From NCBI RefSeq assembly GCF_004359215.1, contig NW_027152023.1, positions 106,373 to 170,372 of the forward strand: a stretch of DNA of 64,000 bases. The letters are read 5' to 3'. Source of the stretch: Bremia lactucae. Its lineage: Eukaryota; Oomycota; Peronosporomycetes; Peronosporales; Peronosporaceae. The notes beneath the pieces are model-generated. The model saw nothing but the letters and a program-made list of their open reading frames with translations. It did not search any database and was not told where the DNA came from. Of this stretch, positions 5,834 through 48,941 are shown piece by piece (the first letter of the stretch is position 1; the number at the start of each line of letters is the position of its first letter). The position numbers and the translations under genes are program-made.

Positions 5834-6374
5834 TTAAAAATTATATAAAATTTAAATTTAAAAATATATCTATAAAGCACCAAATTAATTTAACGTCTTT
5901 TGTTTTAAAAAAATAAAAAAGAAATTTAAAGGGTAAATATCTGTTAGATATTTAACTTTAAAATTTCTTTATAAATTTTTTAAAACATTGTATCTCCCTA
6001 AACCTGTACCATGTATGAAATTTTTTGTATTTTGAACTTTCTTAATTTGAAGGTATTTGTTAATTTTATATACTATTAATTGGACATTATACGGAGTGTT
6101 TTTTTTAATTTTGTTTCTTCTTGATTTGTTAATAACGATTCGTAATCATTTTCAAAAAAAGACTAGACTAATAAATTCCCTTTTTGTTATTTTTATATAT
6201 TTTAACATGCTCATATTTTTTTTTGACCTTAGGATTAGTCTCTAATAAAGAGAATGGGCCTTCAAACGAGGTATTTGAGGCCGTAGCCCAGTTTCAAGCC
6301 ACCAAAATTAGACGAACATTTTAAGTTAAGCAAAAGTTCACAAGCCTGGTGAGGACGAAACGGAATTCTTTATC
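5834..6374 (+). repeat. Direct repeat left of an assembly gap
   Basis: This 541-bp block is repeated at 6870-7410 with no difference that I saw, and exactly fills both edges of the 495-N gap. The same sequence is single at 15411-15951, so the doubling is probably an assembly effect. Confidence 0.75.
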
Positions 6375-6869
6375 NNNNNNNNNNNNNNNNNNNNNNNNNN
6401 NNNNNNNNNNNNNNNNNNNNNNNNNNNNNNNNNNNNNNNNNNNNNNNNNNNNNNNNNNNNNNNNNNNNNNNNNNNNNNNNNNNNNNNNNNNNNNNNNNNN
6501 NNNNNNNNNNNNNNNNNNNNNNNNNNNNNNNNNNNNNNNNNNNNNNNNNNNNNNNNNNNNNNNNNNNNNNNNNNNNNNNNNNNNNNNNNNNNNNNNNNNN
6601 NNNNNNNNNNNNNNNNNNNNNNNNNNNNNNNNNNNNNNNNNNNNNNNNNNNNNNNNNNNNNNNNNNNNNNNNNNNNNNNNNNNNNNNNNNNNNNNNNNNN
6701 NNNNNNNNNNNNNNNNNNNNNNNNNNNNNNNNNNNNNNNNNNNNNNNNNNNNNNNNNNNNNNNNNNNNNNNNNNNNNNNNNNNNNNNNNNNNNNNNNNNN
6801 NNNNNNNNNNNNNNNNNNNNNNNNNNNNNNNNNNNNNNNNNNNNNNNNNNNNNNNNNNNNNNNNNNNNN
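6375..6869. other. Assembly gap (495 N)
   Basis: Only N is given here. It sits in the AT-rich half of insertion X. Confidence 0.99.
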
Positions 6870-7410
6870 TTAAAAATTATATAAAATTTAAATTTAAAAA
6901 TATATCTATAAAGCACCAAATTAATTTAACGTCTTTTGTTTTAAAAAAATAAAAAAGAAATTTAAAGGGTAAATATCTGTTAGATATTTAACTTTAAAAT
7001 TTCTTTATAAATTTTTTAAAACATTGTATCTCCCTAAACCTGTACCATGTATGAAATTTTTTGTATTTTGAACTTTCTTAATTTGAAGGTATTTGTTAAT
7101 TTTATATACTATTAATTGGACATTATACGGAGTGTTTTTTTTAATTTTGTTTCTTCTTGATTTGTTAATAACGATTCGTAATCATTTTCAAAAAAAGACT
7201 AGACTAATAAATTCCCTTTTTGTTATTTTTATATATTTTAACATGCTCATATTTTTTTTTGACCTTAGGATTAGTCTCTAATAAAGAGAATGGGCCTTCA
7301 AACGAGGTATTTGAGGCCGTAGCCCAGTTTCAAGCCACCAAAATTAGACGAACATTTTAAGTTAAGCAAAAGTTCACAAGCCTGGTGAGGACGAAACGGA
7401 ATTCTTTATC
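6870..7410 (+). repeat. Direct repeat right of an assembly gap
   Basis: Second copy of the 541-bp block at 5834-6374, with an offset of 1036 bases. Confidence 0.75.
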
Positions 7411-8440
7411 GATGCCTTTTTCCGGCATCGGTGATACACATTTAAGCGAGCAAAGGATGTCATACCTTCGTCCAAGCTTTTTTATAGTTAATTATTAAAA
7501 AAGTGGATAAAAATAACTAATAAAAATTTAACTATATTGCCTGGATATAATTAACGTACTGTAAATGTTTACAAAGTTTACAACGGTAAAATTTCATTTT
7601 GATTCTCGAGTTAGCAGAAATTCTTCTGCTGACTCATTTGTTTTGTCTCTTTCAGTACGCTTTGTGCGTACTGCCATGATATCATTTTCGTCTTCGATGC
7701 TTCGTGATCAACGTTCTCCCGTAAATCCAGGCGAACGTGATTTAAGTCACAAAGATGACTCAAATGCCCTTAAAATGGTGAGCGCCAGTGAAGATATTTG
7801 CAAGTCAAGCACTTAATAACCGAGCGTTTTCTGTCTATGCAAAACGGAGAGATTGAAATTCAAAGGAATTAACGGGAGTCTACACTTCGTTGCAATCATT
7901 GCAAAAGCACGTTGGGTGGGTGAGGCTAATTCTTGCTATCTGCTGGTACTGACATAGTGGCTGTCTTCTCTCAGCCGCAGTGAGGTAGTTGGTGGGCGCC
8001 TAAGCGATCTTACCCAACGAATTGTAAGCCTTTGTTTAAGTGACGTCATTGGAGTGGTATTCCGGCTCCACGTGTGCACTTACGAACTACGAAGTAGTCT
8101 TCAGACTGATTTTATATAATCGTATTAAATATAAATTTTTTATTTAGCCAATCATAAACGCCATCTCCGTAGATATGCTGTTTCATGTATTACGAGCGTA
8201 TTGTTCTAGATACCTCGTATTTTGAATGACTCAAGCCGTCATCACGGATGACGCTGGGCGTCATCCCTCCTAATGTGAATGCACCCATGTGCATCACATA
8301 CACAAGGGTTGGTCACAAATGTGCACCACACCCGAGTGCTGGGTCTAATTACTATTATTTAGTAATTGACCATCCCCTTAAGCACACTAAGTGTACTTAA
8401 CGGGGACTGTGTGACATTAGGGCAACTTTAACCCGTTACA

Positions 8441-8456
8441 CTATCCCCCCCCTTTA
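8441..8456 (-). other. Polypurine tract of element B
   Basis: On the minus strand AAAGGGGGGGGATAG runs straight into the LTR start TGTAACGGG. This is the normal place and composition of the plus-strand primer of an LTR retrotransposon. Confidence 0.75.
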
Positions 8457-8535
8457 AGAACGAATTTACATTTTTAAATTCGTCAAAGAGGAGAGAGGAA
8501 CTGCGAGCAGCTTTACGCGCCGCTAGTTTACTCGA

Positions 8536-8543
8536 TCACTCTT
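8536..8543 (+). promoter_or_regulatory. Initiator-like motif before the antisense ORF, copy 1
   Basis: TCACTCTT fits the oomycete initiator pattern YCAYTYY and lies 31 bases before the ATG at 8574. The paralogous copy has TCACTCC at the matching place (19522-19528, minus). Promoter activity is inference. Confidence 0.4.
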
Positions 8544-8573: not shown

Positions 8574-8907
8574 ATGCCACCTAAAAGGGGCCACGTTGGT
8601 GGGTCTTCTGCGAAGACGCCCACTCATCCTCGCAATAAGCGAAGCGCCGCGTTGATTCGCCGGCCGCGTCTAATGCCTTAGTCGGAACGCCGACAGCCAC
8701 TGCGGCTGTCGCGTTAACAGGGCTAAAGGATCCATCCCACTTTAACAGTGAGGATGTTGATCCGCCGCTCATTGTCGACTACAATGAGTCGACACCGTTG
8801 CCGTCACCTCATAGTAGTGATGCGGACAACGAGCTCATGAGGAGTGATGATGCGGCATTATTGCCCATCCAAACTTCTCTCATGGCTCACAACATGGAGA
8901 CAGCATC
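8574..8907 (+). pseudogene. Antisense ORF of Fam-1, copy 1 (N-terminal part)
   Basis: It lies on the strand opposite to element B, between the end of pol and the 3' LTR. It starts at ATGCCACC (MPPKRG), breaks by a frameshift near 8680, then continues through VDYNESTPLPSPHSSD and ALLPIQTSLMAHNM until the gap at 8908. The paralogue at 18579-19489 reads nearly the same protein. Many base differences between the copies are silent third-position changes (GAG/GAA, TTG/CTG, CTC/CTA, AGG/AGA), as expected for a sequence once under protein selection. No known domain was recognised; the N-terminus is basic and Ser/Thr-rich. The rest of the protein is hidden in the gap. Confidence 0.6.
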
Positions 8908-9806
8908 NNNNNNNNNNNNNNNNNNNNNNNNNNNNNNNNNNNNNNNNNNNNNNNNNNNNNNNNNNNNNNNNNNNNNNNNNNNNNNNNNNNNNNNNNNNNN
9001 NNNNNNNNNNNNNNNNNNNNNNNNNNNNNNNNNNNNNNNNNNNNNNNNNNNNNNNNNNNNNNNNNNNNNNNNNNNNNNNNNNNNNNNNNNNNNNNNNNNN
9101 NNNNNNNNNNNNNNNNNNNNNNNNNNNNNNNNNNNNNNNNNNNNNNNNNNNNNNNNNNNNNNNNNNNNNNNNNNNNNNNNNNNNNNNNNNNNNNNNNNNN
9201 NNNNNNNNNNNNNNNNNNNNNNNNNNNNNNNNNNNNNNNNNNNNNNNNNNNNNNNNNNNNNNNNNNNNNNNNNNNNNNNNNNNNNNNNNNNNNNNNNNNN
9301 NNNNNNNNNNNNNNNNNNNNNNNNNNNNNNNNNNNNNNNNNNNNNNNNNNNNNNNNNNNNNNNNNNNNNNNNNNNNNNNNNNNNNNNNNNNNNNNNNNNN
9401 NNNNNNNNNNNNNNNNNNNNNNNNNNNNNNNNNNNNNNNNNNNNNNNNNNNNNNNNNNNNNNNNNNNNNNNNNNNNNNNNNNNNNNNNNNNNNNNNNNNN
9501 NNNNNNNNNNNNNNNNNNNNNNNNNNNNNNNNNNNNNNNNNNNNNNNNNNNNNNNNNNNNNNNNNNNNNNNNNNNNNNNNNNNNNNNNNNNNNNNNNNNN
9601 NNNNNNNNNNNNNNNNNNNNNNNNNNNNNNNNNNNNNNNNNNNNNNNNNNNNNNNNNNNNNNNNNNNNNNNNNNNNNNNNNNNNNNNNNNNNNNNNNNNN
9701 NNNNNNNNNNNNNNNNNNNNNNNNNNNNNNNNNNNNNNNNNNNNNNNNNNNNNNNNNNNNNNNNNNNNNNNNNNNNNNNNNNNNNNNNNNNNNNNNNNNN
9801 NNNNNN
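8908..9806. other. Assembly gap (899 N)
   Basis: Only N. It removes the integrase core and chromodomain of element B and the C-terminal part of the antisense ORF. Confidence 0.99.
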
Positions 9807-14381: not shown

Positions 14382-14863
14382 TGTAACGGGCTAAAGTTGC
14401 CCTAATGTTACACAGTCCCCGTTAAGTACACTTGGTGTACTTAAGGGGATGGTCAATTACTAAATAATAGTAATTAGACCCAGCACTCGGGTGTGGAGCA
14501 CAATTGTGACCAACCCTTGTGTATGTGATGCACATGGGTGCATTCACATTCGGAGGGATGACGCCCAGTGTCATCCATGATGACGGCTAGCGTCATCCGT
14601 TACGCGAGGTATCTAGAAAGATACGCTCGCAATACAAATTAAGTGTTATTTATAGAGATGACATTTTAATTGGTACAAATAGGTATTTATATTTAATTCT
14701 ATTAAATATAAATCAGTTCAAAAACTACTTCCTACTTGGTAAGTGCGCACGAGGAGACGGATTACCACTCCAATGACGACACTTAAACAAAGACTTAATG
14801 CGTTGGGTAAGATCGCTTACGCGCCCACCAACTACCTCACTGCCGCAAGAGAAGCAGCCAAAA

Positions 14864-16018
14864 TGTCAGTACCAGCAGATAGCAAGAATTAGCCTCACCC
14901 ACCCAACGTGCTTTTGCAATGATTGCAACGAAGTGTAGACTCCCGTTAATTCCTTTGAATTTCAATCTCTCCGTTTTGCATAGACAGAAAACGCTCGGTT
15001 ATTAAGTGCTTGACTTGCAAATATCTTCACTGGCGCTCACCATTTTAAGGGCATTTGAGTCATCTTTGTGACTTAAATCACGTTCGCCTGGATTTACGGG
15101 AGAACGTTGATCACGAAGCATCGAAGACGAAAATGATATCATGGCAGTACGCACAAAGCGTACTGAAAGAGACAAAACAAATGAGTCAGCAGAAGAATTT
15201 CTGCTAACTCGAGAATCAAAATGAAATTTTACCGTTGTAAACTTTGTAAACATTTACAGTACGTTAATTATATCCAGGCAATATAGTTAAATTTTTATTA
15301 GTTATTTTTATCCACTTTTTTAATAATTAACTATAAAAAAGCTTGGACGAAGGTATGACATCCTTTGCTCGCTTAAATGTGTATCACCGATGCCGGAAAA
15401 AGGCATCGATAAAGAATTCCGTTTCGTCCTCACCAGGCTTGTGAACTTTTGCTTAACTTAAAATGTTCGTCTAATTTTGGTGGCTTGAAACTGGGCTACG
15501 GCCTCAAATACCTCGTTTGAAGGCCCATTCTCTTTATTAGAGACTAATCCTAAGGTCAAAAAAAAATATGAGCATGTTAAAATATATAAAAATAACAAAA
15601 AGGGAATTTATTAGTCTAGTCTTTTTTTGAAAATGATTACGAATCGTTATTAACAAATCAAGAAGAAACAAAATTAAAAAAAACACTCCGTATAATGTCC
15701 AATTAATAGTATATAAAATTAACAAATACCTTCAAATTAAGAAAGTTCAAAATACAAAAAATTTCATACATGGTACAGGTTTAGGGAGATACAATGTTTT
15801 AAAAAATTTATAAAGAAATTTTAAAGTTAAATATCTAACAGATATTTACCCTTTAAATTTCTTTTTTATTTTTTTAAAACAAAAGACGTTAAATTAATTT
15901 GGTGCTTTATAGATATATTTTTAAATTTAAATTTTATATAATTTTTAAATTNNNNNNNNNNNNNNNNNNNNNNNNNNNNNNNNNNNNNNNNNNNNNNNNN
16001 NNNNNNNNNNNNNNNNNA
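14864..16018. mobile_element. Insertion X (copy 2)
   Basis: Reverse-complement copy of the block at 5610-7954, without the internal doubling. It contains the 66-N gap 15952-16017. The pol-like piece is at about 15449-15545. Confidence 0.6.
15952..16017. other. Assembly gap (66 N)
   Basis: Only N. It breaks at the same AT-rich sequence that borders the gap in copy 1 of insertion X. Confidence 0.99.
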
Positions 16019-16565: not shown

Positions 16566-18567
16566 GACAGCCGGATGGTGTCCACTGTCGCCTGCTGTTG
16601 GATCACTTTGGTGGACGAAAGGTTTTCCTTCCGTCGCACCTAAAAGCTAAGCTAAATCGCTTTAGCTACAGCGATGACCTGTTATGGCATCAGCTGTGAC
16701 CTTGTGTTCCCTTGAGAGTCTATGTGCCTCATGACACAAATCACAAGCTGATAATCCTTCACGAGTACCATGATGCACCATCTAGTGGGCATCTGGGCCG
16801 TGAAAAGACATTCTTACGAGTGTCAGAGGAAATTTGGTGGCCACATCTGTATAGATGGGTGTCCAACTATATTCGCTCTTGCGAACAGTGTCAGCACATT
16901 GAGCCTGCACCGTCCAGCACTGCGCCACTGAAGCCGCTACCGATTCCAATTCACCGTTGGAAGTCAGTAAGTCCGGACTTCATGTTTGGCATGCCGCCCG
17001 ATCATAAGGGTCGGACGGGGCTAGCCGTCTTTGTAGATAGACTGAGCAAAATGGTGCATTTAGCACCATGTAAAAAATTGATAACAGGCAAGGAGACAGC
17101 TCTCTCTTGTTCCTGGTCATGTTAACCGACTACACGGGATAACTGAGCCCATTGTATCGGACCTAGGTCCACGTTTTACGTCTGGGTTTTGGTGACATGT
17201 GTTTGAGCTGCTAGGTAGCAAGCGCTATATGTCGACCGCAGATCATCTCCAGACCGATGGCCAATCAGAACGTGTCAATCGGGTCGTGGCGGATGTCTTT
17301 CGCACTAAAGCGACTCCCAAAAATAGGAGCAATTAATTTCTTTTCATGGAGTTTGCTGTTGTGTCCACGCCAGTACGGGTGAGACACCGTGTTAATTTTA
17401 ACGGTTTTCGTTTTTATCCTCGGATGCCAGTCTCGTTTGTCGCAGCCCGAGTTTTAGTGGGGGAGGGCCCCTCACTATGCTCTGTGCGAAAGAGGGGCAT
17501 AGTTTGGTCAATATGATGATGAACCATGAGGGTATCATCTCAAAGACTAAAACTGGCCCTAGTACCCCTGCCAATTTAGCAGTGGTCAAAAACAATTACG
17601 TCCTATGACCGACCTCGCGGCGGTATCATAGGCGAGTTGGATGCTAAAAGCGTGAGCGAGGCTCAACGCTTTGTGGATGAGCGATTAGCCATCACACCAA
17701 AAGTCCGTGACGCAATCGCAAGCGAACAGGACAAGCAAAAAGAAAATGCGGACCGAAATGGTCGCAAAAAAAGAATGCTTTAGAGTGGGTGAAAAGGTAC
17801 TATTAAGTACTGCTATTCTACCTATAAATGCAATTTCTGTACTACCTGGAGGTGCTACGAAGTTGTTGCCGCGTTTTATTGGGCCTTTTACGGTGGTAGA
17901 AGAGGTTGGAGACCTAAACTATAGGCTCACCCTTCCCCCGTATATGAAGACGCACACCGTATTTTACGTGGGTCGTCTGAAACGGTATGTAGACCCAAAT
18001 GAGGTCACATATGGCCGTGAGTCGAGCTTCGATCGGGTGAGGGGGACGGTGAAGGTGAAAAACTATTAGCCGAATGACTCCTCCCACCACGAAATTACTC
18101 GGAAAGCGGGGATACCACGCGCATACTGGAGGTCTCTCAGCATCAACTTCTCCAGGATGTCAAGCCGAAGTTTCGGGCGTTGATAACCCTGACGATCCTT
18201 CGCGCAGACATTTTGAAGATCCGAGGTCAGTCTCAGGACTTGACCCTCGAGATCCCTAATTCGTCGACCAGCAGCACTTAACGCGTACGACTGAACAGAC
18301 GCGGGTAAGGCAGCCGCGATTGGGTGGGCGAAATCGCCACTCCTTTCGGGCGCCGCCTGCACTGATGGGTGCGGTTGGGAATCAACGATTCCTTGTTGGA
18401 AGGTTTCTTGCCCGCCACTCCGTGAGGCAAAAGTATTGAATCCTCGTCCAGTGGAGGGGAACCCGAAAAATTTCGACTCTCGGGAACCGAACGATACTTT
18501 ACGTATTGACGTGCCCTGCTTGATGACTGCCTATGAAAAGGAGCACCAGCTGAGGCCTCTCTGCTAG
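16566..18567 (+). pseudogene. Fam-1 element A integrase and chromodomain
   Basis: This begins inside the linker before integrase. The zinc finger (HEYHD…GHLG…CEQCQ) is at 16755-16900. The catalytic Asp residues are seen in SPDFMFGMPP (about 16970) and IVSDLGPRFTSGFW (about 17150), and the Glu in TDGQSERVNRVV (about 17260), in three shifted frames. The C-terminal part 17707-18069 reads PRFIGPFTVVEE, THTVFYVGRLKRYVDP, typical of gypsy integrases. The chromodomain follows at about 18350-18567: PPALMG, FLVGRFLARHSV, ILVQWRG, then a 2-base frameshift and VPCLMTAYEKEHQL, with the stop at 18565-18567. Many stops and shifts mean it is not functional. A chromodomain directs integration in chromoviruses. 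Confidence 0.85.
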
Positions 18568-18578
18568 TCTCAAATGGA

Positions 18579-19489
18579 TTAGCAGGAGTAGCGTGGTGAG
18601 AAGAAAACAGGGGGTACAGTACCGCCCATGATTTCCTTAACACGCACGCGGGCGAAATTAATTCGCTGCGAGCGCTGTTTTACCACATCGTAATGCGGTT
18701 GAAAGCGGCACGTGAATTCCGCCTCAAATTCGTCGGGCGTTGCATTTGAACGCAACACGACCGAGTTCAAGGGAATACAACCAAGCGATTTTCCCTGAGC
18801 CTTTCATGAATTAATAACGCCATATTTTAGAAGCGTCTACATTAGTGCGCTCTAGAGCGACGCTTTGGACCGTTGGACGATGCCATTGATATAGAAGGAG
18901 CATAAGTGGTATGCCACCCGTCACATAGCCACGTTTAATACAACTGGCTTGTAATACCGACTGAACACGCTTATGTGCCGTCGGTAGAGCTTTATGCTCA
19001 GGCTCTTCTGCGTCAGACCCAATGTGAATGATAGACTAAACGACAGGTGATGTGGTTTTACCAAACTGAGAAGCATCTGCGCCTTAAGGGCATCGTTCTC
19101 ATTAATGGTCGCTACGCTAGCCAGCGCAGACGACGAGACAGCATTAGAAAACTTTGTAGTCTTCATGTTAGGAGCAATGAGTGAAGTTTGGATGGGCAAT
19201 ATAGCGCCAGCATCCTTTCTCATTAGCTCGCTGTACTCATCACTACTATGAGGTGACGGCAGCGGTGTCGATTCATTGTAGTCAGCAACGAGCGACGGAT
19301 CGAAATCCTCACTGAGAAAGTGGGATGGATAAGTCAGACCAATTAACAGCGTGACAGCATCAGTAGATGTCGGCGTTTCCACTAAGGCACTAGGCGCCGG
19401 CAGCGTGTTGAGGCGGCGCGTTCGCTTCGTGCGTGGTTGAGTGGGTGTCTTTGCAAACGACCCACAAGCCTTGACCTTTTAGGTGGCAT
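18579..19489 (-). pseudogene. Antisense ORF of Fam-1, copy 2
   Basis: On the strand opposite to element A it starts ATGCCACC at 19489 (MPPKRSRL) and runs toward pol, ending about 12 bases from the pol stop. Blocks in order: KTPTQPRTKRTRR, DYNESTPLPSPHSSDEY, ILPIQTSLIAPNM, SSSALASVATINENDALKAQ, then after a frameshift EEPEHKALPTAHKRVQSVL and, after another, TPDEFEAEFTCRFQPHYDV and FARVRVKEIMGG. The total is about 300 codons with at least three frameshifts. No known domain was recognised; the N-terminus resembles a nuclear localisation signal. The same ORF is at 8574-8907 in element B. Readings further left on this strand (18066-18570) lie over the chromodomain and may be shadows. Confidence 0.6.
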
Positions 19490-19521: not shown

Positions 19522-19528
19522 GGAGTGA
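19522..19528 (-). promoter_or_regulatory. Initiator-like motif before the antisense ORF, copy 2
   Basis: The minus strand reads TCACTCC, about 33 bases before the ATG at 19489. It matches the position of TCACTCTT in copy 1. Activity is inference. Confidence 0.4.
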
Positions 19529-19553
19529 CTGAGAAAACTAAAGCGGCGCGTAC

Positions 19554-19844
19554 AGCAGATCTACAAAGATAAAATTTATGATTGGTCAAAATAGGTTTTA
19601 CATTTATTACGATTACATATAGATCAGTCTGAAGACTAATTCCTAATTCACAAGTGCGCACGTCGAGACGGATTACCGCTCCCGTGACTTCACTTAAACT
19701 TAACCTTATAGTTCGTTAGGTGAGGTCGCTTAGGCTCCCACCAACTACCTCACTGCACGTGAGAGAAGACGGTCAAACCGCTTTCTCGCTGTGCTAGGGC
19801 GTGCGCTTAAGTAGAGCGCGGCCGCAATAGACGTGTCCGCCTAC
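19554..19844 (+). mobile_element. Element A 3' LTR, 5' part deleted (Fam-1)
   Basis: From TCTACAAAG to GTCCGCCTAC it matches the second half of the 530-bp Fam-1 LTR, including AACCGCTTTCTCGCTGTGCTAG. The first half and the polypurine tract are missing. Fam-2 gag begins straight after it. Confidence 0.75.
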
Positions 19845-19867: not shown

Positions 19868-20750
19868 GAGGCGCAACGCGCAGCTTATAACAAGCTCAAA
19901 ATTCTTTTTGGGCTCGAACATGTAGAGTTCATTTTATCCTACGGACCAGAGGTCCTGCACGCAAGGCTTGAAGCCTTCATGCGATATCAATCCTTCCTGA
20001 TCGGCCAGGTACAAGATCACCTTGCGGCATCGATGCCAACTCGGTACATCTCGGTACCTGATTCGGAGCTTAAGGCTTGCCCTCTAGTTGTCAATGTGAA
20101 TACATTTAAAGGAAAAGAGGAAGGAAGCCTCCCTTTTTTCTTTTGGGGGGAATAGGCAGAGAGATGTCTACTGACTCCGCCTTGTTCTTAAAAGAACGAC
20201 AAAAGGTGGCCATGTCCATGTCCAAGCTCGGAGGTAGAGCTATGGAGTGGGTACTCTCATGCAGCACGTCCATAAACGACGCTTTTCCCTCATGAGGTTC
20301 GCTGAAACAAGTAAATAAACAGCATGTTTGCGCCGCCTAATCAGGCTTTTCGCAATCGGTCACGGCTCATAGCGACTCGAGAGGGTAAACGAACCCTACG
20401 GGACTATGTCCAGGAGTTAAAAATTCTCATTGCATCCATGCATAAGACCCGGTGCAAGAAGCAATTGTCGTAACAGTCTTTAAGAAGGGTCTCAATGAGG
20501 GCGTTGCCCGGACGGAATTATTCCGATCCCATCCTGCTACTTTCGAAGAGGCAGCGCTACGCGCTGAGTTTGACTTCAAGTCTGCTCGTATTAGCCCGCC
20601 TGTTTTCCGTACAAGCTCTTCGAGCACATGGGTTTCGTCTAATAGACCGGAGCTCATGGATCTAAGCCTCGTTGAGGAAGGAGGAGTGGCACTTCAATCT
20701 GTAAAAAAGCATAAGAACATCCGTAGACGTTATATGTGCGGAAGCACGTA
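19868..20750 (+). pseudogene. Fam-2 element C Gag
   Basis: Readable blocks are [51 protein letters not shown] and TDSALFLKERQKVAMSMSK. After frameshifts come GKRTLRDYVQELKILIASM and RPELMDLSLVEEGG. The same blocks occur in D, E, H and J. The start is cut off by the junction with element A, and there are several stops and shifts. A knuckle-like tail (YMCGS) is at about 20730-20750. It is part of the left arm of the large inverted repeat. Confidence 0.8.
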
Positions 20751-20949
20751 ACATTTACGTCCGACCTTTCCCCTACGAAATACCCGTAAGCTCGCAAGAG
20801 CACCAATTCCGACCTATACCAGAAATCTGGTACGGTGCGGGAAACGTCGATATCCAGTGGGTGCGGGGCGCCCTACTGGGGAATACCTAGGCTCTTTTGA
20901 ACCTCTAAGAGGTGAGAGTAAACAGGACCTAGCCCCAGTTAGCTCGGTG

Positions 20950-21340
20950 TGTAATGGCACGAAGCGTGAGTACAAGCCTGGCTTGTTAATCGCTCAGGCG
21001 ACTGCGAAGGGCTTTGATGAGCCATGGTTAAGTTAAATTGACTCAGAAGCGTCTTGCAATAATGCTCGACGTCTTTTCCTTGAGATTATTAACCAACAAT
21101 ACGTTGAGGCGCTTACAGCGTATGAAAGTGATACAATCACTGTTCGCCAAGCGACTCGGACTCGTGTCAGTATTTTTAAAGTTCTGTTGAACTTAGGTAT
21201 GAAAAAGTTTCTGGAATTTGACAGCATGGAACGCTGTCTCGCCTTAATTTGGATTTTATATATGATCTCATCCTTGGTATGGCCTGGCTTGAACGCCATG
21301 AACCATGGATCGATTGGAGGTCTAAGACCTTAGGCGCCAC
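20950..21340 (+). pseudogene. Fam-2 element C retropepsin (active site changed)
   Basis: Blocks EYKPGLLIAQATAKGFDEPW and IDSEASCNNARR are followed by SDTITVRQATRTRVSIF. The active-site Gly reads Glu (DSEA instead of DSGA), and a stop precedes it. Element E keeps DSGA at the same place, which supports the domain call. Confidence 0.75.
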
Positions 21341-22239
21341 GCGCAATGTTCCTAGCAAAGTTTTGGAGAGTCATGAAACTCACTTTTGCTAGGCAACAAA
21401 AGCGATATTGGCGCGGCTGAGTCTATCAGTATTTTAGACATTGGAATATCTGAGTTAATAATCTCCAATGTTGAAAACATTAATTCTGAGCCCGACTCAG
21501 AAGAAGGAAGTGGAACAGCACGTACTCCGTCGAGTGACACTCGTTGTAATAACGATTTACTGAATACTAAAAGCATTGTTGGCCAAGGCCGAGTCATCAA
21601 GGGTGTAATATCCCTGAGGTACGTGGAGTGGCACGTCTATGTACACCGAGTCTGGTCAGCCGAGGTGGCACCATACTGGGTGTCAATAGTGACACTATTG
21701 GCGGTTCGCCAGGGTATTTTGGGTCAAATTCTTTTAATGCACATGAAGCGACACGTAAACGTTCGCTGGATAAGGAAGTTGAGTTACGTAACTCCTTGTC
21801 GGATGTCGAATTAGACACCATGTCTGGTATTGAACCAATACAGACTGGAAAGTTCGGGGACGTGAATGTCCCGGCCTCTAACAGGCGTATTTGTCTCTAC
21901 TCCAAGACAGGAGAGACGCGAAGCGATTTATAGTCCTAAAAGTGATATGTGTTAGCAAGTACACACGCTTGTAAATGGTGTAAACTGGTAACATTGAGGG
22001 AGAAGTTAGCCTTGCGGCAATCCCTTCGCTACATGCTCTCTTAGAGCTAGACGAAATGTCTATCGATGAGTGCGGCCGAGCCTTGAAGGCTGGCGACTTA
22101 TCTGAGATGGTGTTCATTCAGCCTATGATTGGACGAAGCTGTCCTGGATGACACAAAAGCTGCACTAAGCGCTCGGAGTGGGTCATCGATCCTTAAAGAT
22201 CCCACGGATCCATTTTATTCCTTGATTTAGGAATTCCAA
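21341..22239 (+). pseudogene. Fam-2 element C protease-RT linker
   Basis: Broken frames match the same interval of E and H (for example the shared readings around NINSEPDSEEGS and SLSDVELDTMSGIEPIQ). No catalytic domain lies here. A deletion relative to E and H lies near 22115-22135. Confidence 0.6.
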
Positions 22240-23620
22240 GATGTGGTATGTACCAATCCACCATCTCTTTTACCTCCGGATAGAGGTGTCCGTCATAAAA
22301 TTGACTTGGTTTCGGGAACCAAATACTGTGTCACACGACAGTGGCCTTTACTCAGGGAAAAGTGTGACGTCATTGACGATTTCTTCCGAGCCAAGCACGA
22401 GGCGGGAATGGTACGAGAGAGCAAATAATTCAATTCGACACCGACATTTTGTGTTAAGAAGCCAAATGGTAAATGACGCATTGTACATGCTAGTATAAAG
22501 CTTAATGCTGCCAATATACCAACACAAACCCCCATTCCTAGAAAGGATGTTCTTCAGATCAATATGGTGGGATGTACAGTGTAGAGTGCTCTTGACTTGG
22601 TTGATAGTTACTACCAACCGCTCATGCGAGCTAGCGACATTCCGCTTACAGCGGTTAGCACCCCAAGCGGTATGCAATGGGAGTGGTTGGTTTTGCCACA
22701 AGGGCTTTCCAACGCCCTGGCAACATTTAATCGTCGAGTGACGCAACTGTTCCGCCCTCATCGAAGTTATCCATAGACTTATTTGACGACATATTTGTCC
22801 ATAGTCGTGCGGAACAGGGCCACATACGGATGTGAAAAACCACTTAGACCATTTTCGAGCAGTGGTCGAGTGTATGCGTACAAATAAGTTGTATGCCAAT
22901 ACATCTAAATACATGTTTGGTGCAGAAGAAATTCCTGTCTTAGGGTGCTTCATTGGGAAGCAAGGCCTTAAAGCGGATCCTATTAAAGTAAAAGTCATAG
23001 TAGATTGGCCGGTTCCAAAGCACCATAAGGATTTGCGGAAGTGGTTGGGTCTCGCCAATTATTAACACAAATATAGCGAAAATTACGCTGATATGGCTAG
23101 GCCATTATCTAATCTCCTTAAAAAGGATACAAATTGGAGCTGGGCTAGCACAGAACATAATGCTTTTCAAGCAGTTAAGGGATAGCCTTTTCCATGCCCC
23201 GATTCTGGCACTGCCGAATCCAAATCGGCCTTTCAGTGTCGTCTGTTACGCATCAGATTTTGACTTTGGCAGTGCTCTGTTACAAACAGATGCTGATGGG
23301 CGTGAACGTGTTATTGCATTCGAATTGTGATAGCTTAAAGCTGCAAAAAAGCACTACCCAGTTCATGACAAAGAGTTGCTTGCTATGAAGTATGCTCTCG
23401 TCAAATTCAGACTTCATCTGCTTGGCTTTAAGCCGCTTGTGATATATACAGATCACGCGACATTCCGCACTGCGGCTAAGTCGTCCCATCTCTCACAGAG
23501 AATGGCCCGATGGCTATCCTTTTTCACCGAATACAATTTCCAAGCGAAACACAAGCCTGGCAAGCAGAATGCTTGGCCGATGCGTTATCATGCAGGCTGG
23601 ATTATGAGCTCTCTCATTTT
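22240..23620 (+). pseudogene. Fam-2 element C RT and RNase H
   Basis: RT opens with PPDRGVRHKIDLVSGTKYC and passes PTQTPIPRKDVL, SALDLVDSYYQPLMRASDI and the LPQGLSNALATFNRR block. The YxDD region is destroyed (a base change and frameshift near 22775). The thumb EEIPVLGCFIGKQGLKADP and KDLRKWLGLANY follow, then a stop. RNase H remnants include VHDKELLAMKYALVKF-type helix readings and VIYTDHATFRTA at about 23440. At least six disabling changes are visible. Confidence 0.85.
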
Positions 23621-26898: not shown

Positions 26899-27805
26899 CT
26901 TCCTAGCTCCAATTTGTATCCTTTTTAAGGAGATTAGATAATGGCCTAGCCATATCAGCGTAATTTTCGCTATATTTGTGTTAATAATTGGCGAGACCCA
27001 ACCACTTCCGCAAATCCTTATGGTGCTTTGGAACCGGCCAATCTACTATGACTTTTACTTTAATAGGATCCGCTTTAAGGCCTTGCTTCCCAATGAAGCA
27101 CCCTAAGACAGGAATTTCTTCTGCACCAAACATGTATTTAGATGTATTGGCATACAACTTATTTGTACGCATACACTCGACCACTGCTCGAAAATGGTCT
27201 AAGTGGTTTTTCACATCCGTATGTGGCCCTGTTCCGCACGACTATGGACAAATATGTCGTCAAATAAGTCTATGGATAACTTCGATGAGGGCGGAACAGT
27301 TGCGTCACTCGACGATTAAATGTTGCCAGGGCGTTGGAAAGCCCTTGTGGCAAAACCAACCACTCCCATTGCATACCGCTTGGGGTGCTAACCGCTGTAA
27401 GCGGAATGTCGCTAGCTCGCATGAGCGGTTGGTAGTAACTATCAACCAAGTCAAGAGCACTCTACACTGTACATCCCACCATATTGATCTGAAGAACATC
27501 CTTTCTAGGAATGGGGGTTTGTGTTGGTATATTGGCAGCATTAAGCTTTATACTAGCATGTACAATGCGTCATTTACCATTTGGCTTCTTAACACAAAAT
27601 GTCGGTGTCGAATTGAATTATTTGCTCTCTCGTACCATTCCCGCCTCGTGCTTGGCTCGGAAGAAATCGTCAATGACGTCACACTTTTCCCTGAGTAAAG
27701 GCCACTGTCGTGTGACACAGTATTTGGTTCCCGAAACCAAGTCAATTTTATGACGGACACCTCTATCCGGAGGTAAAAGAGATGGTGGATTGGTACATAC
27801 CACAT
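26899..27805 (-). pseudogene. Fam-2 element D RT
   Basis: Same readings and same stops as the RT part of element C (22240-23147), ending abruptly at 26899 in the thumb region. RNase H and integrase are absent. Confidence 0.8.
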
Positions 27806-28699
27806 CTTGGAATTCCTAAATCAAGGAATAAAATGGATCCGTGGGATCTTTAAGGATCGATGACCCACTCCGAGCGCTTAGTGCAGCTTTTGTGTCATCC
27901 AGGACAGCTTCGTCCAATCATAGGCTGAATGAACACCATCTCAGATAAGTCGCCAGCCTTCAAGGCTCGGCCGCACTCATCGATAGACATTTCGTCTAGC
28001 TCTAAGAGAGCATGTAGCGAAGGGATTGCCGCAAGGCTAACTTCTCCCTCAATGTTACCAGTTTACACCATTTACAAGCGTGTGTACTTGCTAACACATA
28101 TCACTTTTAGGACTATAAATCGCTTCGCGTCTCTCCTGTCTTGGAGTAGAGACAAATACGCCTGTTAGAGGCCGGGACATTCACGTCCCCGAACTTTCCA
28201 GTCTGTATTGGTTCAATACCAGACATGGTGTCTAATTCGACATCCGACAAGGAGTTAGGTAACTCAACTTCCTTATCCAGCGAACGTTTACGTGTCGCTT
28301 CATGTGCATTAATAGAATTTGACCCAAAATACCCTGGCGAACCGCCAATAGTGTCACTATTGACACCCAGTATGGTGCCACCTCGGCTGACCAGACTCGG
28401 TGTACATAGACGTGCCACTCCACGTACCTCAGGGATATTACACCCTTGATGACTCGGCCTTGGCCAACAATGCTTTTAGTATTCAGTAAATCGTTATTAC
28501 AACGAGTGTCACTCGACGGAGTACGTGCTGTTCCACTTCCTTCTTCTGAGTCGGGCTCAGAATTAATGTTTTCAACATTGGAGATTATTAACTCAGATAT
28601 TCCAATGTCTAAAACACTGATAGACTCAGCCGCGCCATTAGCGCTTTTGTTGCCTAGCAAAAGTGAGTTTCATGACTCTCCAAAACTTTGCTAGGAACA

Positions 28700-29095
28700 T
28701 TGCGCGTGGCGCCTAAGGTCTTAGACCTCCAATCGATCCATGGTTCATGGCGTTCAAGCCAGGCCATACCAAGGATGAGATCATATATAAAATCCAAATT
28801 AAGGCGAGACAGCGTTCTATACTGTCAAATTCCAGAAACTTTTTCATACCTAAGTTCAACAGAACTTTAAAAATACTGACACGAGTCCGAGTCGCTTGGC
28901 GAACAGTGATTGTATCACTTTCATACGCTGTAAGCGCCTCAACGTATTGTTGGTTAATAATCTCAAGGAAAAGACGTCGAGCATTATTGCAAGACGCTTC
29001 TGAGTCAATTTAACTTAACCATGGCTCATCAAAGCCCTTCGCAGTCGCCTGAGCGATTAACAAGCCAGGCTTGTACTCACGCTTCGTGCCATTAC
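28700..29095 (-). pseudogene. Fam-2 element D retropepsin
   Basis: Carries the same IDSEAS change at the active site as element C. Between it and RT (27806-28699) lies the linker, matching that of C with a few substitutions. Confidence 0.75.
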
Positions 29096-29289
29096 ACACC
29101 GAGCTAACTGGGGCTAGGTCCTGTTTACTCTCACCTCCTAGAGGTTCAAAAGAGCCTAGGTATTCCCCAGTAGGGCGCCCCGCACCCACTGGATATCGAC
29201 GTTTCCCGCACCGTACCAGATTTCTGGTATAGGTCGGAATTGGTGCTCTTGCGAGCTTACGGGTATTTCGTAGGGGAAAGGTCGGACGT

Positions 29290-30177
29290 AAATGTTACGT
29301 GCTTCCGCACATATAACGTCTACGGATGTTCTTATGCTTTTTTACAGATTGAAGTGCCACTCCTCCTTCCTCAACGAGGCTTAGATCCATGAGCTCCGGT
29401 CTATTAGACGAAACCCATGTGCTCGAAGAGCTTGTACGGAAAACAGGCGGGCTAATACGAGCAGACTTGAAGTCAAACTCAGCGCGTAGCGCTGCCTCTT
29501 CGAAAGTAGCAGGATGGGATCGGAATAATTCCGTCCGGGCAACGCCCTCATTGAGACCCTTCTTAAAGACTGTTACGACAATTGCTTCTTGCACCGGGTC
29601 TTATGCATGGATGCAATGAGAATTTTTAACTCCTGGACATAGTCCCGTAGGGTTCGTTTACCCTCTCGAGTCGCTATGAGCCGTGACCGATTGCGAAAAG
29701 CCTGATTAGGCGGCGCAAACATGCTGTTTATTTACTTGTTTCAGCGAACCTCATGAGGGAAAAGCGTCGTTTATGGACGTGCTGCATGAGAGTACCCACT
29801 CCATAGCTCTACCTCCGAGCTTGGACATGGACATGGCCACCTTTTGTCGTTCTTTTAAGAACAAGGCGGAGTCAGTAGACATCTCTCTGCCTATTCCCCC
29901 CAAAAGAAAAAGGGAGGTTTCCTTCCTCTTTTCCTTTAAATGTATTCACATTGACAACTAGAGGGCAAGCCTTAAGCTCCGAATCAGGTACCGAGATGTA
30001 CCGAGTTGGCATCGATGCCGCAAGGTGATCTTGTACCTGGCCGATCAGGGAGGATTGATATCGGATGAAGGCTTCAAGCCTTGCGTGCAGGACCTCTGGT
30101 CCGTAGGATAAAATGAACTCTACATGTTCGAGCCCAAATAGAGTTTTGAGCTTGTGATAAGCTGCGCGTTGCGCCTC
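29290..30177 (-). pseudogene. Fam-2 element D Gag
   Basis: Mirror of the Gag of element C with the same frame breaks. Beyond the inverted-repeat arm (30178-30245) it continues into the Gag start and leader, so D keeps a 5' end that C has lost. Confidence 0.75.
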
Positions 30178-30756: not shown

Positions 30757-32875
30757 TTACGACGAATCTTCGTCATCGATATTTAGCATGATTTCTATGT
30801 CGTCGTAATCAGCACCAAATGTCCAATTGACGTCATCGTCAGGCATGTGGTACAAACACTTGCTAATAAGAAACTCTTGCCGGTATTTCTGCACGACGAC
30901 GTCCTCAGGAATATCATCAATACAAACCTCGAGAAAATACTTAAATAGGAACATGAAGCAAATGAACATTGTAAACATCCATACGCGAGTGGCCATCGCT
31001 AAATGATTAAAGAAATTTCCGGTGAATATGACAACAGCACCGTTGGTGCATACTGAGATGGCTGCAAATGCCTGCAGCACAAGGTACCAGTATCCCATAC
31101 TGCGTACATTGCGCGGACGAGGACGACGAGACTCAAAAATCAGGCGGTAGGCATCTAATCGAATCTCAAAGTAATTATTTACATACGAAAGCAAAGGTGC
31201 AAACGGGAAAGCTACCACAAACATTGTTGTGAAGCCGAACTGAAGAGCCATTTCTGTATAGTCATCGAATGTACCGTGCCAGTCATACTGTGCCATAAAC
31301 AGCTCTCGTTCGGCATCTGACTTTTTGTAGTCGTCAATGTGCCCTAGTAAGCGATACTTGCTCAAGTAAACGAAAAAGCGCGGAATGGCCACCTCAGTGA
31401 TATTTCCAACGAAAAGGCGCGAGCAAAAGACGATGGCAAGCATGTACTCAAGCTCATGGATACAACTTATATCGCAACCTTCTAAGCCTTCCTTAAGAAA
31501 GGCTACATAAAAGAGTCCGGCATAATTGTTTACAAATTGGAAAATCACAGTCTTGATGATAAGACTGTTTTCATATTCCATATCGGTGCGATGGTTCTCC
31601 TGGTCGACAAGCACAATTGACACATAGTTGTAAATTTTCGTCATAACCGTAATCTGGACAACATTCGCCAACGAAGACACGATGGAGCCGTACTTAAAAT
31701 TATCCAGGACGAGAAAATTCGAGTCACTACCCTTAGTAAGGTCGTACGTCAGCATGAAAATCGACGACACGAGAACAAACACTATCAAGATGAGAAATGA
31801 AATTACGACCCAGCTGTACGCCACCCGCTTAAGCTTTTCACGTGGTGAAAAATACCGCGTCGACTTGCCATTAATGGGCGATGGAATGCGTTCCCCATAA
31901 AACTGAGGCCGAAGGTTCACGGTCTCGGAATAGTGCGCTGTACCCCACCGCAGTGTCTCGCGAGAGCTAAGGCGCTTCCAATTCTCGAGGTAGATGGTCA
32001 TCCAAATGGTCATAAACGCTCCAAACAAGGGCGATATGTACGCAAACACAGCATTGTAATCATCACGCGGGATGGAATAACTGATTATGCCCGTTACGAT
32101 TCCTACGAGCGTTGGATAGAGTAACCACTTGGTATAGTGTCCTAGATAGAGGAAATACAGAGCCACCTTGACGCCAAAGTATTGGCAAATTCGGTCAAAA
32201 GGCTGGTTCATGGGGGACATGTTCCATACAATCCAGTTATCCTTAAGATCCATTTTCTCCTGCTCTTCGTGCAATGGATACGTGTCGACAATAGTTTCCT
32301 CGTAAATGAGCCGATCAATGTCTTGGCCAGCTCCAGTTTGGTGATTGGTAATAATATGCTCGATCAGGCCAATCCGATCTGTGCTCGAAAAGATCGAGCC
32401 ATTTGGGCCCTTTCGAGTATAAAAGTGCTGTAGATCCCGTGCCTGGAAGTAGGGCGCAAAGATGTAGTCGAAGGGAGAGTACCTGTATATTTGCTTTACG
32501 TCTCGAATCGGAAAAGGCGCAATGCCATACTCTGGGATGCCATTGAATGAAGCGTGACGCAGCTCGGTTGGATCGAGTTGGAGGTGTAATTTAAGTACCT
32601 CCGCTTCTCGCCGCATAAGCTCTTCTGGAGCACGGATCTTGCAGAATACGAGCTCCTTGCCCACGGAAAAAAATAGCCGCAGTCGCAGCCCAGCAGCGCG
32701 CAGTCGTTTGATGATAGTGTCGCGCTCATCGCTGACCTCGATCACGTGCTTTGGGGGATTTGGAAACACAATTACATAGTCCCACCGCCCGCCTGTCTCG
32801 ACTAAGGACGTGCCATAATGCAGCGGCACGCGTACGCGTAGCTCGGCTGTCTGTGGTTGGGGATAAGGGTCGGTC
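30757..32875 (-). CDS. Anoctamin/TMEM16 family membrane protein
   Basis: The uninterrupted 706-residue frame starts at ATG 32873-32875/32877 (MTDPYPQPQT) and has no intron. Anoctamins are dimeric membrane proteins that act as calcium-activated chloride channels or phospholipid scramblases. Residues 1-235 form the cytosolic N-terminal domain, with YPLHEEQEKMDLKDNWIVW near 200-219. The family hallmark QYFGVKVALYFLYLGHYTKW (232-251) opens the membrane part, and about ten hydrophobic segments follow to 650. FQFVNNYAGLFYVAFLKEG (446-464) is the TM6 block. ALQFGFTTMFVVAFPFAPL (544-562) and EIRLDA (571-576) form the TM7-TM8 region, the latter giving two acidic residues of the family calcium site. 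The C-terminus is acidic. Length is typical of lower-eukaryote members. Channel versus scramblase activity and membrane cannot be told from the sequence. Confidence 0.93.
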
Positions 32876-32937
32876 ATACGACCGTGAGTTCTGATTTATG
32901 AAAGAGCACTTTATAAATAATTTTAGGGAAATGTTAT

Positions 32938-44041: not shown

Positions 44042-45139
44042 TTACTCGCTCTGTTGATTACAAGCTTCCGCAGTGAATCTCGTAACGTCCAAGGAGCTTT
44101 GAGCAATGACGTTCTCGAGACGCTTTTCAATATCGACGGTATGAAGCAAAATTCGCTGCATTAGAATCGCCGAGTCGCCATCTAATCCAGGAATCAGTGC
44201 CTGTAGATTCCGTTCGCCTTGCCACAATTGAATAACTCCCGCTTTCAGTGAATACCCTTGAGCATCGAGGTCATCGAGACCTGATCCGTGTTCAAAATGA
44301 GTTTTAATAGCTTGCTGTTGCTTGTCGTCGTCGTCAAGATATGGCACGACAGCAATAAGCTGCAACGTGTCGTCTAACTCATTCAGAACCTTTTCAATCG
44401 AATGATCTTCTGGTGCTTTACGATCCACGGGATTATAAGCCGGAGCTGAAGAATGCCGTTCTTCGCGCTTGGCCTCGTGACGGTCGTTCTCATGCGTTTC
44501 ATCTTCCTTTTCAAAGCCTAAATTTGGATTCTCTACTGCGTGTTTACCTACACTTTTGCCCCAGCTTCCTTTGTCCCATTGAAAGACCTCAGGGAGCCCA
44601 CAGTTGCTGAAAAATTGACCCAATGCCTCCTCTACCAACGTATTACATGCACCTCCCGTCGTGCGTAGTTGCAACTCGACTTCTTTAAATTCACCCTCGA
44701 TAGGTGTTTTTAAAAAAAATGGAAGTTTTAAGGTCTTGGCTGGGGGAAATTGATTGTGTTTCTCAATGGCGTCCAGGATGCCCAAGAGCTCTTTGTACGA
44801 TTCCTCATTTGCGCGCTGCTGCGTTGGATACTGTCCAAAGAGATCCGGATGCGTACGCAAATAGAGCTTGCGCAACGTTTCTTTAAGAATTGGCACCTTG
44901 ACTCCTTTTTGGCTCTTGTTGACGCGTAATTTCTTCCGACGGAGCGTGCGTTCGCTGACTTTTGTTCGTACAAAACTAATGCTGCTGGTTCGGGTTGATA
45001 GGAATGGAGGGTCGATAGAGCAAGGCACGCGGTGCTTATGCATTTGTTGCCAGGGAATTGCTGTGCTTAAGCGTGTAGACGCGTGCATTTGGAAGCGAGA
45101 AACGATAAGCGTCTGACGAGCTAGTGCGACGAAGCCCAT
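44042..45139 (-). CDS. Mitochondrial-type DUF4460 protein (TCAIM-like)
   Basis: The frame of 365 residues starts best at ATG 45137-45139 (MGFVALARQTL); the frame is open two codons further but from a GTG. Residues 1-65 are rich in Arg, Ser and Thr with almost no acidic residues, as in a mitochondrial presequence. Residues about 83-180 carry the DUF4460 signature: LRKLYLRTHPDLFGQYP (89-105), then ANEESYKELLGILDAIEKH, a J-domain-like helical motif also found in the animal mitochondrial protein TCAIM. A charged low-complexity linker (205-245) leads to a C-terminal domain (about 248-350: VLNELDDTLQLIAVVPYL, HFEHGSGLDDLD, RILLHTVDIEKRLE) that I do not recognise but which is shared with the neighbour at 45502-46122. 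Function is unknown. Confidence 0.85.
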   Translation of the reverse strand: MGFVALARQTLIVSRFQMHASTRLSTAIPWQQMHKHRVPCSIDPPFLSTRTSSISFVRTKVSERTLRRKKLRVNKSQKGVKVPILKETLRKLYLRTHPDLFGQYPTQQRANEESYKELLGILDAIEKHNQFPPAKTLKLPFFLKTPIEGEFKEVELQLRTTGGACNTLVEEALGQFFSNCGLPEVFQWDKGSWGKSVGKHAVENPNLGFEKEDETHENDRHEAKREERHSSAPAYNPVDRKAPEDHSIEKVLNELDDTLQLIAVVPYLDDDDKQQQAIKTHFEHGSGLDDLDAQGYSLKAGVIQLWQGERNLQALIPGLDGDSAILMQRILLHTVDIEKRLENVIAQSSLDVTRFTAEACNQQSE

Positions 45140-45501
45140 TACCACCGCTTTTCAGAGCCCTGAAGGCAAGAATGAATAAAATTATTTATCACTTTTTTTG
45201 AGAGCAAAATATGCGTTTTTCGTAATGAGCACAAATTCGGGTCATGCCTGAAATTACATGTTGCCCATTTTCTTGTGCATTTTACGGCGAGGTATTCTTA
45301 CAATCGTTCTTTATTTCTAACATAAGATAAGGAGAATTTATCAATGGTGCAAGTATACGTACATCATTTATACGGGACTTAGACGTCTTGATTGCCTGTG
45401 TCGAATCAAAAGTTAAGAGCAAAAGCAAAGCACGCGGGCTCGACCAAGATCTCCGCAATACCTTGATGGTGTCGAGATGACTTCTTTTTTAACGGACAAT
45501 C
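45140..45501. other. Intergenic between tandem paralogues
   Basis: About 360 bp. It must hold the promoter of the DUF4460 gene and the 3' end of the upstream paralogue. No clear motif was seen. Confidence 0.5.
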
Positions 45502-48495: not shown

Positions 48496-48941
48496 CGTTG
48501 CTAAACTTTGTCGACTGCTGCGGATCCTGTTCAAGAAAGTGTTCGGAAGAACGGGGGGTAGGTTATTTTTTGGAAATTTTTATTTTGTTATTTGAATGGA
48601 TTTTATTGCCAGATCGTTATTAATTAAAAAAAAGAATGCCAGTTAGCAAACAGTTTAACTAAGTAAAATTTTAGGAAAACATGATCCTTTGGCTGATGTA
48701 TATTTGGTAAGGCTGTAGAGATAGAGTGCGGCAACCGATTCTAGTTTACAGATGGACAAAGGTCTAAGTCCTTCATACTAGCCATAGAAGGATATGAATA
48801 TTAAAAATAACGACGACAAGAAACAGTCTCTAATTTGCTCTACACTGTTTAGTAAGTATACTTCGTTACGACGTAGTGCTAGCTAAGTAAAATAAACAGG
48901 TGTTCCTTGTACCGCACACTATCTCCGTCCCAGCGCGAGAT
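48479..48941. repeat. Promoter-side segment, copy 1, next to element K
   Basis: Runs from inside the first codons of the TMEM41-like gene through its 5' flank to GCGCGAGAT, where the element K LTR begins. Copy 2 is at 54837-55309. By eye the two differ at roughly one base in ten, with small indels. Confidence 0.85.

What the first reader, a model, noticed from the sequence alone, without database searches (positions are those of the whole stretch)
18579..19489. Fam-1 retrotransposons carry an antisense gene-like ORF between pol and the 3' LTR
In two Fam-1 elements lying in opposite orientations (A: 18579-19489 minus; B: 8574-8907 plus) the strand opposite to pol reads a related protein starting MPPKR at the same relative position. 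Copies differ often at third codon positions while the protein blocks (NESTPLPSPHSSD, PIQTSLIAPNM) stay. An initiator-like TCACTC motif sits 31-33 bases before each ATG, and the ORF ends about 12 bases from the pol stop. Antisense accessory ORFs are known for plant LTR elements such as Grande1 and RIRE2 and for HTLV-1 (HBZ). I know of none described for oomycete chromoviruses, though I could not search.
Basis: partly seen in the sequence, partly recalled or inferred. Interest (0 to 1): 0.8.

Follow-up and report, generated by a model that had tools for sequence, protein, structure and literature searches.

The report
Antisense gene in downy mildew retrotransposons

Summary
The antisense gene is real, but the two window copies are dead relics: the MPPKR frame stops at codon 36 in both, and the named blocks lie in another frame. 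Elsewhere in the genome an intact copy encodes 493 aa. 27 public proteins match the family, including Peronospora effusa and P. farinosa at 44-51% identity. In P. farinosa and one unnamed record the frame runs on into antisense integrase, so the tail-to-tail layout is shared between genera. All 20 sampled integrase loci have the gene's 3' end directly downstream, 14 over nearly the whole 600 bases read. Differences in single copies look neutral (ratio 1.08); those shared by six or more copies are constrained (0.73, no stops); an integrase piece in 19 of the copies gives 0.67. An oomycete initiator motif lies 25-60 nt before the ATG in 26 of 32 copies. The protein is basic, mostly disordered in the model, with a coiled coil and no Pfam match. 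It is a member of the known kind of antisense accessory ORFs (Grande, RIRE2, Retand, Boty), with a protein of its own. Expression and function are untested.

The parts
18017..19489 (-). Copy A: decayed antisense accessory gene (aORF), start MPPKR at 19489; frameshifts and stops inside
   Evidence: blastn to the intact aORF of L045: 78.7%, query 1-1455, window 19489-18017; stops in frame
19522..19528 (-). Initiator-like YCAYTYY (TCACTCC), starting 39 nt before the ATG of A
   Evidence: INR definition YCAYTYY in PMC3599244, passages seen
19552..19770 (.). Truncated 3' LTR next to A: keeps about 220 nt of the LTR, lacks the polypurine tract and the rest
   Evidence: 79.5% to window 7963-8181; the stretch that B has between 8181 and 8510 is missing
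16582..18069 (+). Copy A: remnant of pol; the integrase C-terminal reading ends in a stop at 18067-18069
   Evidence: 16582-17043 matches B's pol at 93.5%; L001 reading
8574..8907 (+). Copy B: 5' part of the aORF, cut by a run of N at 8908-9806; frame broken near 8645
   Evidence: blastn 94.6% to L045 aORF nt 1-335; tblastn splits at 8645
8536..8542 (+). Initiator-like YCAYTYY (TCACTCT), starting 38 nt before the ATG of B
8460..8483 (.). Inverted repeat ACGAATTTA-6-TAAATTCGT between polypurine tract and initiator
   Evidence: best inverted repeat of the upstream region scores >=9 in 13 of 32 copies, against 0.3% of shuffles
8441..8459 (-). Polypurine tract of element B (element sense is -), next to the LTR end GTTACA
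   Evidence: direct reading
7963..8440 (-). 3' LTR of element B; its outer boundary is uncertain
   Evidence: repeat matches; LTR pairs in L039 and L034
8858..11689 (-). pol of element B (reverse transcriptase, RNase H, integrase zinc-binding), interrupted by the run of N
   Evidence: Pfam PF00078, PF17917, PF17919, PF17921

Best explanation
A and B are dead copies of a Ty3/gypsy-type LTR retrotransposon family whose better-kept members carry a true antisense accessory gene between pol and the 3' LTR. Shown here: a frame of about 480-495 aa from MPPKR, conserved between the window's genome (inferred Bremia) and Peronospora, tail-to-tail with pol and overlapping its 3' end, present at all 20 sampled loci of this integrase lineage. 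Inferred: it is transcribed from its own initiator-type promoter between the polypurine tract and its ATG, independently of the 5' LTR. Inferred, less certain: the product enters the nucleus (basic start with a KRTRR-type motif, basic Arg/Ser-rich end), self-associates through its coiled coil, and acts in trans on the element's own nucleic acid, chromatin or integration complex, regulating expression or integration in the manner suggested for Grande GENE23 and known for HBZ. Probabilities: real selected protein gene about 0.93; own antisense promoter about 0.7; nuclear regulatory or integration role about 0.4.
For: Intact 493-aa frame in L045. A second frame open for 429 codons up to a run of N in L016. 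Relatives covering the whole query: P0001 75%, P0006 54%, P. effusa P0007 51%, P0008 48%; 32 invariant columns in 13 sequences. Tails of P. farinosa P0010 and of P0015 equal antisense integrase (33 and 28 of 47 identical; E 2e-23 and 4e-17 in a subject set of 299 letters). 20 of 20 sampled integrase loci have the aORF 3' end directly downstream (14 over 575-594 nt, 6 over only 69-85 nt, five of these six followed by N). Pooled nonsynonymous/synonymous ratio against a substitution-matched null: 0.80 in the aORF frame, the lowest of six. Variants in one copy 1.08; in six or more copies 0.73 with 0 stops, 4.5 expected, 4 of 200 simulations reaching the synonymous count. Between-subfamily differences 0.69 and 0.59 at two thresholds with 0 stops (41 and 22 of 500 simulations). 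Median NG86 ratio 0.69 over 55 pairs of 11 chosen low-indel copies. Integrase yardstick 0.665 in 19 copies. Initiator 25-60 nt upstream in 26 of 32 copies, shuffle expectation 4.6%; reverse orientation in 1 of 32. pI 9.7-10.4 in the 6 proteins computed. Long helix 372-441, mean pLDDT 80-93 over 391-440.
Against: Most copies are dead: 1 of 93 matches is both full-length and free of stops. Constraint inside the genome is modest, the copies are not independent, and single copies range from 0.54 to 1.12. The antisense frame that shares third positions is nearly as low (0.84; 0.77) and in the overlap is lower than the gene's own frame (0.68 against 0.84). At the stricter threshold the overlap shows no constraint (ratio 1.55 on 11 changes). 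The core that is best conserved between genera gives 0.71 and the linker 0.96, weaker than the N-terminal part (0.46). No RNA or protein evidence of expression was available. No Pfam match, no convincing PDB match, low model confidence (mean pLDDT 47 and 63), so the function is inference from composition and analogy. The initiator is inherited by related copies, so 26 of 32 is not 26 independent cases.
Confidence: 0.6

Rival explanations
1. Regulatory antisense RNA: the conserved unit is an antisense transcript that pairs with the genomic RNA and limits the element through double-stranded RNA; the protein is secondary.
For: The layout is convergent and the gene's last 95 or so codons lie opposite pol in the intact copy. 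Antisense transcripts of other elements are discussed this way in PMC7264820 (section 8 read).
Against: The frame is open over its whole length in another genus at 51% identity (P0007); old differences avoid stops and favour synonymous sites. An RNA role alone does not need that. Both roles could hold together.
Confidence: 0.12
2. Capsid, packaging or other structural accessory protein rather than a nuclear regulator.
For: Basic, disordered, coiled-coil proteins can be structural (recalled); no function was shown here.
Against: The sense strand already has a zinc-knuckle Gag-like stretch (3 of 16 stretches scanned, L032, L042, L044) and a retroviral-type protease (L044). No zinc knuckle is seen in the aORF proteins printed, and an antisense gene fits a separately timed product better.
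Confidence: 0.15
3. Captured host gene carried as a passenger.
For: Relatives in P. effusa are deposited as unnamed protein products; gene capture by LTR elements is known (PMC7264820, section 6 read).
Against: Present at all 20 sampled loci of the lineage and in the same antisense place in another genus. Three protein searches found only this family, though each scored only the candidates sharing most words (7998, 7992, 4265), so a divergent host gene could be missed.
Confidence: 0.06
4. Chance or nested insertion seen in two copies, with no coding meaning.
For: Both window copies are broken and their codon-position pattern is nearly flat.
Against: At least 40 scored DNA matches, an intact frame, relatives in another genus, constraint on shared variants.
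Confidence: 0.02

Closest known systems
Antisense aORFs between pol and the 3' LTR of plant LTR elements: maize Grande (gene23), rice RIRE2, Silene Retand, PvRetro13
   Same: Antisense, between pol and 3' LTR, family-wide, conserved across species; a promoter upstream of the ORF is reported for gene23 (PMC7264820, sections 5-8 read)
   Different: No TRP28 (PF04195) or other Pfam match at E<=1; host is an oomycete (inferred); the frame overlaps pol's 3' end by about 95 codons. Sequences of the plant proteins were not compared directly
Boty-like elements of Botrytis cinerea with antisense gene brtn (Zhao et al. 2011)
   Same: Antisense gene in a non-plant LTR element of a filamentous eukaryote
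   Different: Only the title (in a reference list) and a mention in PMC7264820 were seen; sequences were not compared. No protein named as fungal was among the 27 hits
HTLV-1 HBZ
   Same: Antisense gene of a retroelement; HBZ is nuclear and critical in the virus life cycle (PMC11963269, passages seen); HTLV's antisense promoter lies in the 3' LTR (PMC7264820)
   Different: No Pfam match of any kind in the aORF, bZIP included; the putative start signal here lies inside the element next to the ATG; splicing not examined
Retand TRP28 proteins
   Different: No PF04195 match

Membership tests
Antisense aORF between pol and 3' LTR (aORF-3R) | Lies between pol and the 3' LTR in antisense | tested here: met
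   overlaps pol's end in the intact copy
Antisense aORF between pol and 3' LTR (aORF-3R) | Present in most copies of the family | tested here: met
   20 of 20 sampled integrase loci, 14 over nearly all of the 600 bases, 6 over 69-85 nt only; the 20 were hand-picked from 139 rows, avoiding rows I had seen to adjoin the gene
Antisense aORF between pol and 3' LTR (aORF-3R) | Conserved as protein between species | tested here: met
Antisense aORF between pol and 3' LTR (aORF-3R) | Transcribed in antisense from its own promoter | not testable with these tools
   only a motif match: YCAYTYY in 26 of 32 copies
Antisense aORF between pol and 3' LTR (aORF-3R) | Nuclear protein (shown for gene23) | not testable with these tools
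   basic ends and pI near 10 only
TRP28 / Retand antisense protein | PF04195 domain | tested here: not met
   no Pfam family at E<=1 in 5 proteins or pieces
HBZ | bZIP domain | tested here: not met
   no Pfam family at E<=1; a coiled coil is modelled
Ty3/gypsy LTR retrotransposon (the carrier) | LTRs, protease, reverse transcriptase-RNase H before integrase | tested here: met
   read from different copies, no single uninterrupted copy was read
Chromovirus | Chromodomain at the integrase C-terminus | tested here: not met
   L027:2717-3859 gives SH3_Tf2-1 (above its cut-off) and Integrase_p58_C (below), no chromodomain at E<=0.1; one piece only
Chromovirus | Place in the reverse-transcriptase tree | not tested
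   no reference set was at hand

The most novel reading that the evidence does not exclude
Downy-mildew gypsy elements evolved, independently of plants, fungi and deltaretroviruses, an ambisense design in which a self-associating nuclear antisense protein takes over a control or targeting task that other lineages give to a chromodomain or to LTR-encoded regulators; its end and pol's tail have been fitted into one overlapping antisense stretch.
Probability: 0.15. Interest if true: 0.75.

Novelty: new member of a known kind. Interest (0 to 1): 0.52.

Why it matters
Antisense accessory genes in the same slot are reported from plants and from a fungus, with unknown roles (PMC7264820). An oomycete case with its own protein family suggests that the slot is filled again and again, which makes 'what is an antisense gene there for' a comparative question. 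It also affects annotation: these frames are already deposited as unnamed protein products of Peronospora effusa and P. farinosa, so they can inflate mildew gene counts.

Tried and rejected
Rejected: chance or two-copy insertion. Secreted effector: no search was run; the start of the protein reads as basic with no hydrophobic stretch, a direct reading only. bZIP, TRP28 and any other Pfam domain: no match at E<=1. PDB by sequence: one hit at E 0.054, judged chance. PDB by fold, on the full-length model: one match, E 5.9, meaningless at this confidence. Viral contigs: 36 stretches matched a pattern, none confirmed. A second model, of the conserved core, gave three helices at mean pLDDT 63 and pTM 0.29 and was not searched. 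Target-site duplications: not evident by eye in the two LTR pairs read (89% and 91% identical); the third pair, in L037, includes the tract and initiator and so is no 5'-3' LTR pair. Pol's tail in the overlap: ratio 1.33 in the pol frame against 0.84 in the aORF frame, which I read as the aORF being the constrained one; the antisense frame that shares third positions gives 0.68 and is read as a by-product, which these data do not prove. P0027's tail matched nothing in the one comparison made. The 11 low-indel copies were chosen by hand from 31; L028, with as few indel blocks as the chosen L024 (6), was left out. In one search, 10 of 29 copies were dropped for gaps or short coverage. Paper searches for an oomycete case: (listings with starts of abstracts only); none listed is about one, and PMC6570648 has 'antisense' 0 times in its main text. 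The library lacks most subscription journals and preprints. Nearest stramenopile note seen: an opposite-strand gene in a Sola1 DNA transposon of Ectocarpus (PMC12477816, passages).

Full report
What was claimed and what is there. The window lies in a genome of 115.9 Mb in 220 contigs. Size and gap content fit the Bremia lactucae SF5 assembly (115 Mb with 24 Mb of gaps; passages of PMC6570648); the species is therefore inferred, not given. Element A (antisense strand from 19489) and element B (from 8574) both begin MPPKR on the strand opposite to pol. B is cut by N at 8908. The two copies differ by 20/20/29 changes at codon positions 1/2/3, too flat to carry the claim on their own.

The gene is real elsewhere. 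A DNA search of the genome scored 40 matches of 2280 candidates. Of the 30 fetched, L016 is open for 429 codons from its ATG to a run of N. A further locus, L045, is open throughout: 493 aa from MPPKRG to RRHHRSP and a stop. A search with the P. effusa relative gave 93 matches (89 of 5322 candidates scored): 18 have no stop inside, and 1 is both full-length and free of stops. Most copies are thus broken, as expected of a transposon family.

Relatives. Sixteen public proteins match at E<=0.01 and 25 at E<=0.001 with a profile, 27 different ones in all. Identity to L016 runs from 44 to 93%; the named Peronospora ones of that list are at 44-51%. A third search on the conserved core found only proteins of this family. 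Each search scored only the candidates sharing most words. No hit was named Phytophthora, but transposon frames are often left out of gene sets, so this is weak evidence of absence. Two relatives run on past the gene into a reading that equals the antisense of this family's integrase end: P0010 of P. farinosa (33 of 47 identical, E 2e-23) and P0015 (28 of 47, E 4e-17); these E-values are for a subject set of 299 letters. The tail-to-tail layout is therefore shared between genera.

Linkage. A search with 280 aa of integrase gave 139 matches (138 of 13954 candidates scored). I picked 20 of the 139 rows by hand over the identity range 100-82%, avoiding rows I had seen to adjoin the gene, and took 600 bases downstream. 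All 20 carry the gene's 3' end in antisense: 14 over 575-594 nt, 6 only over 69-85 nt. In five of those six, N (1 to 498 of them) follow within two bases; L050 has none. The query came from a gene-bearing copy, so this speaks for this pol lineage, not for other families.

Selection. All 30 copies first fetched were compared with L045 on its codon columns, with a null that keeps the kinds of substitution. For codons 1-396 the pooled ratio is 0.80 in the gene's frame (single copies 0.54-1.12) and 0.84-1.16 in the other five; the next lowest is the antisense frame that shares third positions. Variants in one copy only give 1.08, in two 1.10, in three to five 1.09, and in six or more 0.73 with no stops against 4.5 expected; 4 of 200 simulations reach the synonymous count. 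Recent differences are neutral and old ones constrained, as expected if selection acts on active lineages and dead copies drift. Differences between two subfamilies (11 and 20 copies, split by identity to L045) give 0.69 or 0.59 at two thresholds, none making a stop (41 and 22 of 500 simulations). In the overlap the same test gives 0.68 and, on 11 changes, 1.55, so it is inconclusive there. Among 11 hand-chosen low-indel copies the 55 NG86 ratios have median 0.69, range 0.43-1.04; by part, medians against L045 are 0.46 (codons 1-180), 0.71 (181-300), 0.96 (301-385) and 0.62 (386-493, 22 copies). These pairs are not independent, and the part best conserved between genera is not the most constrained here. 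An integrase piece in 19 copies (10 of 29 dropped) gives 0.665, so the gene is constrained somewhat less than integrase.

Anatomy. Reading along the gene: 3' LTR, polypurine tract, a short inverted repeat, an initiator-like motif, ATG, frame. In P. infestans the initiator is YCAYTYY, and start sites lie 32-144 nt (median 50) before the start codon (PMC3599244, passages). Here YCAYTYY lies 25-60 nt before the ATG in 26 of 32 copies, at 38 or 39 nt in 21 of them, against 4.6% in shuffles for the 25-60 range; L004 has it at 57, not at the common site. In L045 the gene's last 95 or so codons are opposite pol. Of 15 loci whose integrase end was recognised, pol's frame runs that far or nearly so in 8 and stops earlier in 7. 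In the overlap the ratio is 0.84 for the gene's frame and 1.33 for pol's. The integrase piece of L027 ends in an SH3_Tf2-1 domain with no chromodomain match. A protease (L044) and a zinc-knuckle Gag-like stretch (L032, L042, L044 among 16 stretches scanned) are on the sense strand, so the antisense protein probably does not stand in for Gag. Copy A has lost its polypurine tract and part of its LTR.

Protein. pI 9.7-10.4 in the six proteins computed; first 40 residues basic; last 60 basic and serine-rich. The nuclear-signal reading of the KRTRR-type motif is recalled knowledge, not a prediction run. AlphaFold2 on 10 sequences gives mean pLDDT 47: mostly disordered, helices between 199 and 275 at moderate confidence, and one long helix at 372-441, confident (80-93) over 391-440. 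The core alone gives three helices at mean pLDDT 63. No Pfam match and no convincing PDB match.

How it most likely works. Shown: a conserved antisense protein frame of a retrotransposon lineage, with signs of selection. Inferred: own promoter. Inferred with less confidence: nuclear, self-associating regulator or integration helper. This follows the composition of the protein and the suggestions made for plant antisense genes (PMC7264820, sections 5-8 read; PMC11963269, passages).

Novelty. The kind is known in plants and in the fungus Botrytis. No paper on an oomycete case was listed in the searches made, and the protein matched no described family. I file it as a new member of a known kind.

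Changes on checking.

Noticed in passing
window 8460-8483 and the same place in other copies: Inverted repeat between polypurine tract and initiator, kept in many copies (score >=9 in 13 of 32); variants in L002, L003/L006 and L028 look compensatory by eye, which suggests a hairpin with a role next to the 3' LTR.
   Followed up: partly
L001 and other fetched copies: The antisense gene differs more between copies than integrase does (L001: 80% against 92% identity; different reference copies), hinting at recombined 3' ends or faster evolution.
   Followed up: no
window 20132-23144 and 26902-29914: 3013-nt inverted repeat, 100% complementary, 3757 nt apart: a very young inverted duplication or an assembly artefact.
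   Followed up: no
window 5834-6374, 6870-7410, 6801-7963, 14855-16017: Identical direct and inverted copies around runs of N, possibly collapsed or scaffolded repeats.
   Followed up: no
window 30757-32895 -, 44042-45151 -, 47737-48579 -: Host-type genes: anoctamin, DUF4460 and VTT-domain proteins.
   Followed up: no
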